From Microcyclospora pomicola (taxonomy: Eukaryota > Ascomycota > Dothideomycetes > Capnodiales): a stretch of 64,000 bases of DNA. Positions within the stretch are counted from its first letter, which is position 1. Each line of letters starts with the position of its first letter. Below the pieces are notes generated by a model that was not told the origin of the DNA, did no database searches, and saw nothing but the letters and a program-made list of their open reading frames with translations. The stretch lies in assembly GCA_002786065.1 (NCBI GenBank), contig NHNY01000029.1:248001-312000 (forward strand), written 5' to 3'. Below, piece by piece: positions 34,123 through 55,308 of the stretch. A program made the translations under genes and the position numbers.

Positions 34123-35428
34123 ATGCTGGGAACCTGGACAGCAAGCGGAGGCCGAGAGACGCGCCCTTTCAGTCAATATACGAGCGCCATCCAGCAGCCA
34201 CGGTCGCTAAGACGTAATAACGCTCGACGAGCATGCTATCTCTGTAGGAGAAAGAAGGTAACATGCCTCCCTCTTATACTTCAAGCTAGACCTAGGGCTG
34301 ATTCGTTTGCAGCTCAAATGCAGCGGTGAGGCTGGAAGCTGTAGTCGATGCTGCAGTTTGGCCACCAAATGCATTTATCCGCCAGACGTCGAGCAATACA
34401 GAGGCCGGGAACACACCGCACATCTCGTCGAAGCTCGCCCACAGCGTAGACATCGTTCTGATCCTAATCAGCACGTTGATGCTTCGCAAGACACATCGGC
34501 CTATGAGACGGCTCAGTCCAGCGTAAACGAAAATGAAGACACCCACAGGCTCAGCAGCCCGAAGCACAGAGCGGAGCAGGTTCCAACCGATGGCTGCGTA
34601 GATATCGATCACATCAATGGTGCAGCTGGACGGGCACACGCAGGCACTGGGCTACTCGCTGACATACCAGGCACTGGAACATCGGAATCGGGTATGTTGG
34701 AGAGTCTATGAAGCGCCGAGCGTCGGCTTACACATGCAGTAGGGTTCGACAACTCCTTAGTTGAGAGCTTGATTGGAGATCCCTACTTCACGCCTCTGAG
34801 CACCAGGACATGGGCTCCGGGGCGTACGGAGACTACAAGGTCGTACAACCATGGTTCATCACCTACTTCATGGACCCTTGAGCCCGCAATGATATCAGGA
34901 CCGGATGAAGGCGAGGATTTCATGCTTTCCGACGACCACCCCTTTGAAGCATGTGAGTGCCTGCAAATAGCAGCGCAAGTCTTGCACGAAGTCAGTGCGC
35001 ACGCCAGCTCCGCGAGTTCAGCAAGGAGGCCGAGTCTTAGTCAACATCTGGAACTGTTCGGCACCAGTACACGCCGTCTCCAATGTATAACACGTTGCAC
35101 ATCCTGCATGTTCCGTACCGAGAACATGATGATCAATGCCATGGCATTGCAGCAGCTGTGTAGCGTGTGCGAGCACATGTCGAGCATACCGGAAATCGAC
35201 CTCTATAACACAAGATCTCCAATCGACATCCGCATCGGACAGTCGCAGATTAATCTTGGGAATGACGGAGGTCAAATCTGTCGTGCGATCGTGGCTTCGC
35301 AGCTGAATGTCTTCACAAACCTGGTGGAGGATTTCAAGATGATGTCGACAAGCATGCCCACCCCTTTCGCATTGCTTCAAGGGATCGGAAACAGAATTGT
35401 CAACATGCGTGCGGCGGACCGTACATGA
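34123..35428 (+). CDS. Zn2Cys6 (AflR-like) pathway transcription factor
   Basis: Predicted exons are 34123-34257, 34313-34691 and 34743-35428, giving 399 residues. The first intron (GTAACA...TTGCAG) splits the zinc cluster. Joined, the spacing is C38-x2-C41-x6-C48-x6-C55-x2-C58-x6-C65, an exact Zn2Cys6 binuclear cluster, followed by a basic/Pro linker. The second intron uses GTATGT and ends TAG at 34742. The C-terminal half has a CLQIAAQVLHEV helix and a later MAMQQL-like region as in AflR-family regulators of fungal secondary metabolism, so it probably acts in the nucleus on CGG-containing sites. It lies about 470 bp upstream of the PKS on the same strand, the usual place for a pathway activator. 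The start codon is the only ATG in frame upstream of the cluster motif. The C terminus could extend if a further intron exists. Confidence 0.8.
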
Positions 35429-35899
35429 GGCTGCGGATGTTGATAGACCCAAAGCGACCGTCAAAATGCCCGAATATACCGAGCTACTTTTCGTCTGGGG
35501 TGCTTGTACATGCTCAGTAGATACGAGATAACGATACTTCAGCGCTTCTCGAGCAAGGCCACCCTAAACAATGTTCCAAGCGGCAAGTCCATGTCTATTT
35601 GCGGATGCATCCTTCCATCATGCTGCTATAGAAATGCCTCAAATCCTGATCAGCTCCATCAGTCGGACTTCCCGTTAGAGCTTCCGAGCCAAGCGTCCAG
35701 CATGACTACATAGAGGGAAATACCTTCTCGTGCCACCAACAATCCTGCGGCGCACCTTTTACGGCAAGTCTTGATCTGGTGTCTCGACGAGGCTTAAGTA
35801 CGTGCACACTATAAGAAATAATATAGTCCTCAGTAGGGAAACCCTACACACCGCAGTCGAACGCCTTACCCCGAGCTCTAATCCGGGATATATCGAAAG
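35429..35899. promoter_or_regulatory. Intergenic region / PKS promoter
   Basis: These 470 bp separate the regulator stop from the PKS start. No gene recognised. It should hold the regulator terminator and the PKS promoter; no strong box is obvious by eye. Confidence 0.4.
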
Positions 35900-54080: not shown

Positions 54081-54225
54081 ATTGGGCTCACCGATGGATT
54101 GATAGCATGATTTCAGTTCAGTAGATGGAACTGTAGCAAAACTGTACGGCCAAACAATTTCCACTCTATCAGGCGCGTCTTGGCTAGAACTCGCTCACCA
54201 CTCCATCCGAAGTTTTACTCGACTG

Positions 54226-55308
54226 CTATCTTTTTGCTGCCTCTTCCTCCACTATGCTGTCGAAATGTATCCGGACAATCGGCCAGACGAGCGACATCAA
54301 CAGTCCTAATAGCCAGTCCGATATCGGCCTGACCTTCGGACTGCAACCACGCATGTTATTCAACAGCAGTCTAGTCTGAAAGTCTGTTGTCACGAAATAC
54401 TCTCCACGATCCAAGCCCTTCAATATCCTTTTAGCGACCTCCTTCGCATCCATACCACCACCGTTACCCTCGCTTCCCTCGAGTCGCTTGCACAAATCTG
54501 GCTTCTTTTCTTGCTCGCGATAAAAGCTGTCGGTATAGATAGTTCCGGGGAAGGAGCAGTGTACACGAATATTGACTGTCGAGCTGTACAGAAGAGCTTC
54601 TTGTCGAAGCACATCTGCTAGTGTACGAATTGCTGCTTTGGAAGGACAATATGCGTCGTATCCAGGCAAGGATATCAACGCTGCTGTACTGGCTGTAAAG
54701 ACTAGGTGACGGTCTTTGAGTGCTGCTGGAGCTGTCAAGCTGCATGCAATCCAGCGCTTCCACACTGCTTGCGCCAGGTATGTGGAAGAGTGGTAGTTCT
54801 TGTCCATACACTGGCGCATGACGTGTCCAGGTATGTCACAGAAGAAGCCAAGTTCGTGCTCAGTACCACCAGCAACACAGAAGACTGCATCCGGTACATC
54901 ATTGTCATGCAGTTGAGAGATGTACTCTTCCACCTGTGTACTCGTTAGTAGGTAAGTAGTCGCGATCGCTCTCTCTCACCGACCAGCGTGTTTTCGAGCA
55001 GATCTAGGCTCTTGGCGGCGATGCGCTGATCTTGAGAGATTCTGCTCGAGTTCAACAAGTTTTGAGCTTTCTTCAGAACAGCCTGGTCGCGAGCCAAGAT
55101 TGTAACATGGGCTCCTGAACGACCGATGAGTTGAGTGACGATCTCTCTTGCTGGAAGTTTTGCCTACCACGAGTCACCAATTGTAGTGCAAGCTCTCGTC
55201 CAAGTCCCCTTGAACCTCCAGCAACGACGACATGCTATTTGTTCGTCAGCTGCAATCCTTGAAGTCTCCAAACACACACACCTTCTCTCGAACATCAAAG
55301 TGACCCAT
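54226..55308 (-). CDS. 3-ketosphinganine reductase-like short-chain dehydrogenase (Tsc10/KDSR family)
   Basis: Predicted minus-strand exons are 55308-55282, 55234-55168, 55114-54984 and 54933-54226, giving about 310 residues. Splicing restores HVVVAGGSRGLGRELALQL (NADPH Rossmann loop), then TRGAHVTILARD, with FCVAGG as the NNAG equivalent. The catalytic set is Ser157 (TASTAALISLPG) and Tyr170-x3-Lys174 (YCPSK). The C terminus has a hydrophobic helix (WLLGLLMSLVWPIV) as in ER-membrane KDSR proteins. It should reduce the 3-keto group left by the oxoamine synthase, as Tsc10 does in sphingolipid synthesis. It converges on that gene, 145 bp away. The third intron is uncertain: the frame needs a donor at 54983 (GTCGGT), whereas the better consensus GTGAGA at 54979 would break the frame. 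Confidence 0.87.

What the first reader, a model, noticed from the sequence alone, without database searches (positions are those of the whole stretch)
34123..55308. Sphinganine-analogue-type gene cluster without recognisable oxidases
The three core steps are together: a reducing, methylating PKS without a release domain, a fused serine-palmitoyltransferase-type oxoamine synthase, and a 3-ketosphinganine-reductase-like SDR. Two Zn2Cys6 regulators and an exporter accompany them. Fumonisin, AAL-toxin and sphingofungin pathways share this core (established). The lack of P450s, dioxygenases and tricarballylic-ester genes here suggests a shorter pathway or a different product (inference).
Basis: partly seen in the sequence, partly recalled or inferred. 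Interest (0 to 1): 0.88.

Follow-up and report, generated by a model that had tools for sequence, protein, structure and literature searches.

The report
Minimal fungal sphinganine-analogue gene cluster
A fungus carries a compact set of genes with open reading frames that should build a small sphinganine look-alike lipid by three known steps; clusters without further oxidases are already described, so this is a new example rather than a new kind of system.

Summary
At 34123-55308 six genes with open frames lie together: a Zn2Cys6 regulator, a 2613-aa reducing, methylating PKS ending in an ACP, an MFS exporter, a second C6-type regulator, an 820-aa fused LCB2-LCB1 type oxoamine synthase, and a Tsc10-like reductase. 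The synthase's N half groups with the genome's own LCB2 and its C half with LCB1; separate LCB1, LCB2 and TSC10-like genes lie on other contigs, so these are paralogues. No P450, PhyH, 2OG-oxygenase, FAD_binding_3 or ceramide-synthase match was found on this contig, and the cluster is an island nearly free of RIP signal between 46 kb and 24 kb of RIP-mutated DNA, so the lack of oxidases is not an edge artefact. The synthase has alanine at the site that sets amino-acid choice in Fum8; I predict a methyl-branched 1-deoxysphinganine-type amino alcohol, as in AOD. 'No oxidases' is not new: Fusarium SAM3 and SAM5 (AOD) clusters have only these three enzymes, and Pseudocercospora fijiensis PKS8-2 is a similar small cluster. 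The PKS is nearest to a Peltaster fructicola protein (72%), not to the one PKS I could tie (indirectly) to a fused synthase, and departs from a near-invariant KS residue. Product, expression and organism are untested.

The parts
34123..35428 (+). Zn2Cys6 regulator 1, 400 aa; exons 34123-34257, 34313-34691, 34740-35428
   Evidence: open frame; Zn_clus 27.5 bits, cut-off 21
35900..44246 (+). Highly reducing, methylating PKS, 2613 aa, ten exons, KS-AT-DH-MT-ER-KR-ACP, no release domain
   Evidence: open frame; Pfam; motif columns against 120 homologues; 72% to Peltaster fructicola
44540..46440 (.). Degenerate stretch between PKS and exporter; by eye possibly retroelement remains
   Evidence: GC 0.401 and weak RIP indices at 44001-46000; Pfam finds nothing in ORF 45444-45926, so the retroelement reading is unproven
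47053..48840 (-). MFS exporter, 560 aa; exons 48840-48610, 48553-48131, 48081-47053
   Evidence: open frame; MFS_1 E 1.6e-46, TRI12 E 2e-15
49495..50670 (+). C6-type regulator 2, 391 aa, no intron
   Evidence: open frame; Zn_clus below cut-off, 16.0 bits
51526..54080 (+). Fused LCB2-LCB1 type oxoamine synthase, 820 aa; exons 51526-51765, 51812-53363, 53410-54080
   Evidence: open frame; homologues; half-trees and hhalign; PDB SPT subunit 2
52580..52582 (+). Codon of Lys337, the expected PLP lysine, invariant in alignment A1
   Evidence: A1 invariant columns S336, K337; PLP role is known for the family (recalled)
53264..53266 (+). Codon of Ala565, aligned with Fum8 position 580
   Evidence: A in 13 of 16 aligned sequences, V in ALT4 and Bipolaris; Fum8-580 rule (PMC12821873 section 17)
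54226..55308 (-). 3-ketosphinganine-reductase-like SDR, 310 aa; exons 55308-55282, 55234-55168, 55114-54984, 54933-54226
   Evidence: open frame; best PDB match TSC10 E 2.2e-24
34001..58000 (.). Island of 12 two-kb steps of which only 44001-46000 shows RIP indices, and weakly; flanked by 23 upstream and 12 downstream steps that all do

Best explanation
A minimal sphinganine-analogue (SAM) biosynthetic cluster. The PKS builds a reduced, C-methylated acyl chain and holds it on its terminal ACP. The fused PLP enzyme condenses that chain with an amino acid, most likely alanine, losing CO2 and freeing a 2-amino-3-ketone. The SDR reduces the ketone, giving a 2-amino-3-ol of the 1-deoxysphinganine type, close in plan to Fusarium AOD. 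The MFS protein exports it and one or both regulators switch the genes on. Shown here: gene content, open frames, enzyme families, paralogy to primary sphingolipid genes, clean boundaries. Inferred: that the genes work together, order of steps, alanine, branching, export, regulation.
For: PKS ends in an ACP with nothing after it and keeps the catalytic KS Cys and both His, and the AT, DH, MT, ER, KR and ACP motifs. The synthase's N half joins the own LCB2 with support 1.0 and the C half the own LCB1 with 1.0; long fused relatives include ALT4, 40% over 97%. SDR matches TSC10 at E 2.2e-24, next match 2.5e-9. Own LCB2, LCB1 and TSC10-like genes are elsewhere, with best PDB matches SPT2 (7.5e-197), SPT1 (1.8e-90) and TSC10 (1.3e-28). 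Island boundaries. Ala565 with the Fum8-580 rule. Same three-enzyme content as SAM3 and SAM5.
Against: The PKS is not near the one PKS tied to a fused synthase. The query has Ile where 116 of 120 homologues (Peltaster included) have Asn beside the second catalytic His of the KS; its effect is unknown, so reduced KS activity is possible. No promoter motif is shared by all genes. Neither synthase search returned a Peltaster, Talaromyces or Colletotrichum protein, so relatives of this PKS may work without such a synthase; but Fusarium Fum8 was not returned either, so those lists are incomplete. The Fum8-580 rule was shown in FUM proteins only, and SphA uses aminomalonate (PMC10936153 passages).
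Confidence: 0.6

Rival explanations
1. The same three-step cluster, but the synthase uses serine, glycine or aminomalonate, so the product is a true sphinganine, a 1-nor compound or a carboxylated base rather than a 1-deoxy one.
For: SphA condenses its polyketide with aminomalonate and can also use serine with palmitoyl-CoA (PMC10936153 passages). Ala565 is shared by fused synthases of unknown product, so it may not be diagnostic outside FUM clusters.
Against: In 10 of 10 FUM-type producers listed with a known phenotype, alanine at this site goes with alanine use and valine with glycine use, and a swap at the site changed the product (PMC12821873 section 17).
Confidence: 0.22
2. Two unrelated units sit side by side: a PKS with its regulator, and a synthase-SDR pair that works in sphingolipid supply or self-protection.
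For: PKS relatives differ from those of A. filifer. Kim et al. found PKSs close to the SAM5 PKS in genomes with no other SAM5 genes (PMC7376913 section 7, passage). SphA and SphF can feed sphingolipid synthesis and eased myriocin toxicity (PMC10936153 passages).
Against: The PKS has no release domain, and its neighbour is the enzyme type that performs release in fumonisin and AAL-toxin synthesis (PMC4936691 passage); all six genes share one small island bounded by decayed DNA.
Confidence: 0.08
3. A SAM cluster that no longer makes its product: silent, or with a weakened PKS.
For: Surrounding DNA is decayed; the KS departs from a near-invariant Asn; regulator 2 matches its family only weakly.
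Against: All six frames are open, the catalytic KS Cys and His residues are kept, and the island carries little RIP signal.
Confidence: 0.1

Closest known systems
Fusarium SAM5 (AOD) and SAM3 clusters (PMC7376913; sections 5, 8, 9, 10, 12 read, passages elsewhere)
   Same: PKS, aminotransferase and SDR with no other known enzymes; SAM5 makes 2-amino-14,16-dimethyloctadecan-3-ol, lost when its PKS was deleted; alanine predicted
   Different: Sequences of these clusters were not available here, so orthology is untested; accessory genes were not compared
Pseudocercospora fijiensis PKS8-2 cluster (PMC4936691, PMC8550591; passages only)
   Same: Small cluster with PKS, regulator, MFS transporter, oxoamine synthase and ketosphinganine reductase in a dothideomycete
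   Different: It also has a sphingolipid hydroxylase; its PKS groups with Fum1; product unknown and no clear role shown by silencing
Fumonisin (FUM) and AAL-toxin (ALT) clusters
   Same: Long fused oxoamine synthase (ALT4 40% over 97%), PKS without release domain, 3-keto reductase
   Different: No P450 or PhyH match on this contig; PKS relation untested against Fum1 and ALT1
Sphingofungin cluster of Aspergillus fumigatus (PMC10936153; passages only)
   Same: PKS SphB, aminotransferase SphA, ketoreductase SphF, MFS SphD
   Different: SphA chain in the PDB is 490 aa and matches only part of the N half (E 6.7e-7); P450 SphH and monooxygenase SphC are absent here
Bacterial PfSgaAB pathway (PMC12134224; abstract and outline only)
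   Same: PKS plus oxoamine synthase make sphinganines
   Different: Bacterial; organisation and sequence not compared

Membership tests
Fungal SAM cluster (Kim et al. 2020) | PKS for a highly reduced linear chain | tested here: met
   KS-AT-DH-MT-ER-KR-ACP; reduced chain itself is inference
Fungal SAM cluster (Kim et al. 2020) | Class II aminotransferase (oxoamine synthase) in the cluster | tested here: met
Fungal SAM cluster (Kim et al. 2020) | SDR for the 3-keto group in the cluster | tested here: met
   TSC10 best match
Fungal SAM cluster (Kim et al. 2020) | PKS within the clades of known SAM PKSs | tested here: inconclusive
   Not near A. filifer P0147; Fum1, ALT1, SphB, AOD1 and Fusarium SAM PKSs not obtained
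Fungal SAM cluster (Kim et al. 2020) | Product is a sphinganine analogue | not testable with these tools
   needs chemistry
FUM/ALT cluster | Long fused oxoamine synthase of the Fum8/ALT4 kind | tested here: met
   (ALT4 compared; Fum8 itself not retrieved)
FUM/ALT cluster | Clustered P450 and dioxygenase tailoring genes | tested here: not met
   none on contig C22
Sphingofungin cluster | SphA-type synthase of about 490 aa and P450 | tested here: not met
   820-aa fused synthase; no P450 on C22; the 490-aa length is that of a PDB chain
AOD (SAM5) cluster | No known enzymes beyond PKS, aminotransferase and SDR | tested here: met
AOD (SAM5) cluster | Orthologous PKS and aminotransferase | not tested

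The most novel reading that the evidence does not exclude
A SAM pathway put together a separate time: a Fum8-type fused release enzyme joined to a PKS from a lineage not known for sphinganine analogues (the Peltaster, Talaromyces rugulosus and Colletotrichum/Pyricularia group), giving a three-enzyme route to an undescribed branched 1-deoxysphinganine analogue. It persists as an island largely spared from RIP inside decayed DNA, so it is either recently arrived or kept by selection.
Probability: 0.22. Interest if true: 0.5.

Novelty: new member of a known kind. Interest (0 to 1): 0.3.

Why it matters
If the product is confirmed, this adds a lineage and probably a new branched 1-deoxysphinganine analogue to a family of sphingolipid-like metabolites, made by three enzymes only: a handy minimal case for asking how a PKS hands its chain to an SPT-like enzyme. 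It would also test whether the alanine/valine rule at the Fum8-580 site holds outside FUM clusters. It does not change what is known of how such clusters work.

Tried and rejected
Rejected: that the synthase is the cell's ordinary serine palmitoyltransferase (own LCB1 and LCB2 are separate genes on C45 and C11; the fused clade stands apart). Rejected: that oxidases were missed just beyond the edge. Rejected: that EAHMTGT in the KS marks a dead domain; M stands at that place in 43 of 120 homologues. Not rejected: that the Ile for Asn beside the second KS His matters.

Led nowhere: promoter motifs (GTTCGGA occurs twice upstream of the synthase and twice upstream of the SDR and never in about 16.3 kb of cluster coding DNA, but not upstream of the others, many words were tried so this is weak); Rfam scan, 0 matches; a paper search for azaB; the second synthase search with an alignment query, which gave 41 hits but no fungal synthase beyond those. 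No structure was predicted. ORFs outside the cluster were only partly scanned against Pfam: 15 of the 37 listed and 3 of the 18 listed. L025 was used for composition only.

Full report
Where it is. The window is bases 248001-312000 of contig C22 (331,218 bases) of a 23.4-Mb assembly in 58 contigs. The PKS is 72% identical over 99% to a protein of Peltaster fructicola, a sooty-blotch fungus of class Dothideomycetes, so a dothideomycete is likely; this is inference from one gene.

Gene models. I spliced the six genes by hand and each frame is open: regulators of 400 and 391 aa, PKS of 2613 aa in ten exons, exporter of 560 aa and SDR of 310 aa, synthase of 820 aa. One PKS acceptor (CGAG) and one SDR donor (GTCGGT) are weak and may be off by a few residues. 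No transcript supports the models.

PKS. Pfam finds KS, AT, DH, MT, ER, KR and ACP, the ACP match ending at residue 2597 of 2613, and nothing after it. Against 120 homologues the catalytic KS Cys and two His, the AT Ser, the DH His and Asp, and the MT, ER, KR and ACP motifs are kept. One departure counts against full activity: the query has Ile where 116 of 120 homologues, Peltaster among them, have Asn next to the second KS His (2 have Ser, 1 Val, 1 a gap). The enzyme should make a reduced, C-methylated chain and need an outside enzyme for release; the M in EAHMTGT is ordinary (43 of 120). In a FastTree of 121 sequences it groups with Peltaster (P0033) and then Talaromyces rugulosus (P0034), both nodes 1.0, then with 10 Colletotrichum and 3 Pyricularia proteins (0.868). 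The A. filifer PKS P0147, whose longest contig has the same length (105,490) as that of the fused synthase P0007, lies elsewhere. The tree holds only the 120 listed of 7420 hits, all found by the query, and lacks Fum1, ALT1, SphB and AOD1, so it cannot settle membership of the SAM PKS clades.

Synthase. The searches gave 32 hits and 41 (alignment query), each from about 8000 scored candidates. P0001-P0020 are the close kind: 14 long proteins (762-984 aa) and 6 shorter fragments, among them P0006 (metagenome, 64% identity over 59%). ALT4 of Alternaria is 40% over 97%. I cut the aligned proteins into halves; one N half (P0015) and five C halves (P0006, P0016-P0019) were too short and were dropped. 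With the genome's own LCB2, LCB1, ALAS-like and AONS-like proteins and five database proteins, the 20 N halves join LCB2 (1.0) and the 16 C halves join LCB1 (1.0); the fused group itself has 0.989 (N) and only 0.55 (C). hhalign agrees: N half with LCB2 E 4.6e-42; C half with LCB1 4.2e-14, but also with ALAS 7e-12. The best solved relative is yeast SPT subunit 2. The own genes' best PDB matches are SPT2, SPT1 and TSC10; the ALAS and AONS labels are my reading of the sequences. Fusarium Fum8 was not returned by either search, so the lists are incomplete, and the absence of Peltaster, Talaromyces and Colletotrichum synthases from them is weak evidence.

Amino acid. PMC12821873 (section 17 read; passages) shows that alanine or valine at Fum8 position 580 decides alanine or glycine use. 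The aligned site here is Ala565: of 16 sequences with a letter, 13 have A, 2 have V (ALT4 and Bipolaris, as that paper lists for those fungi) and 1 has P. I did not align Fum8 itself. Hence alanine is predicted, with the caution that SphA uses aminomalonate (PMC10936153 passages).

SDR and paralogues. The SDR's best solved relative is TSC10 (E 2.2e-24; next 2.5e-9). A 36% identical homologue lies on C20, LCB2 on C11 (32% to residues 90-486) and LCB1 on C45. The cluster genes are extra copies.

Boundaries. Twenty-three successive 2-kb steps upstream (C22:236001-282000) and twelve downstream (306001-330000) carry RIP indices; of the 12 between, one does, weakly (292001-294000). There is no ORF of 150 aa or more in window 1-34000, none of 120 aa in C22:238001-248000, and only three of 110 aa or more in C22:312001-331218. 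No P450, PhyH, 2OG oxygenase, FAD_binding_3 or TRAM_LAG1_CLN8 match lies on C22; other oxidase families were not sought, and these scans score only best candidates. The cluster thus has no neighbouring oxidase of these kinds, and no clustered ceramide synthase. Enzymes elsewhere in the genome could still act on the product.

Against what is known. Kim et al. 2020 (PMC7376913; abstract and sections 5, 8, 9, 10, 12 read, passages of others) define SAM clusters by PKS, aminotransferase and SDR, say that SAM3 and SAM5 have no other known enzymes, tie SAM5 to AOD by PKS deletion, and list putative SAM clusters in 43 non-Fusarium species, Dothideomycetes included, 26 of them with an SDR. P. fijiensis PKS8-2 (PMC4936691, PMC8550591, passages) is a six-gene relative in content, upregulated in infected banana, with no clear role shown by silencing. 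Zymoseptoria tritici has a fumonisin-like PKS cluster without Fum8 (PMC5561558, passages). Paper searches (an open-licence library) showed none on this locus, which I could not name.

Verdict. New member of a known kind with open frames and clear edges. Open points: product, amino acid used, PKS activity and the history of the PKS.

Noticed in passing
window 27455-29140 and 19236-20291: Two arrays of 126-nt repeats (12 and 7 copies in register); the ORF at 19940-20260 matches TPR_10 (E 1.6e-18), so these look like decayed genes with 42-residue TPR repeats.
   Followed up: partly
window 12841-13092: Piece of a retroelement RNase H domain (RT_RNaseH_2, E 3.7e-26) in the RIP-mutated flank.
   Followed up: no
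window 56705-57292: Broken MFS gene fragment beyond the SDR: two ORFs in one frame parted by a stop, MFS_1 E 0.0062 (below cut-off) and 1.8e-10. Described only.
   Followed up: partly
window 21564-22839 and 25909-27184: Inverted repeat of 1276 nt, 93% complementary, 3069 nt between the arms.
   Followed up: no
window 16176-16264 and 58885-58973: An 89-nt repeat, 88% alike, occurs on both sides of the cluster.
   Followed up: no
window 49052-49165: Three tandem copies of a 38-nt unit (66-71% alike) between the divergent exporter and regulator 2 genes; a possible control element.
   Followed up: no
L027 7883-8290 and L028 294-734, minus strand: ORFs that by eye resemble a reverse transcriptase and a gag-like protein with a zinc knuckle, downstream of the window; no family search was run.
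   Followed up: no
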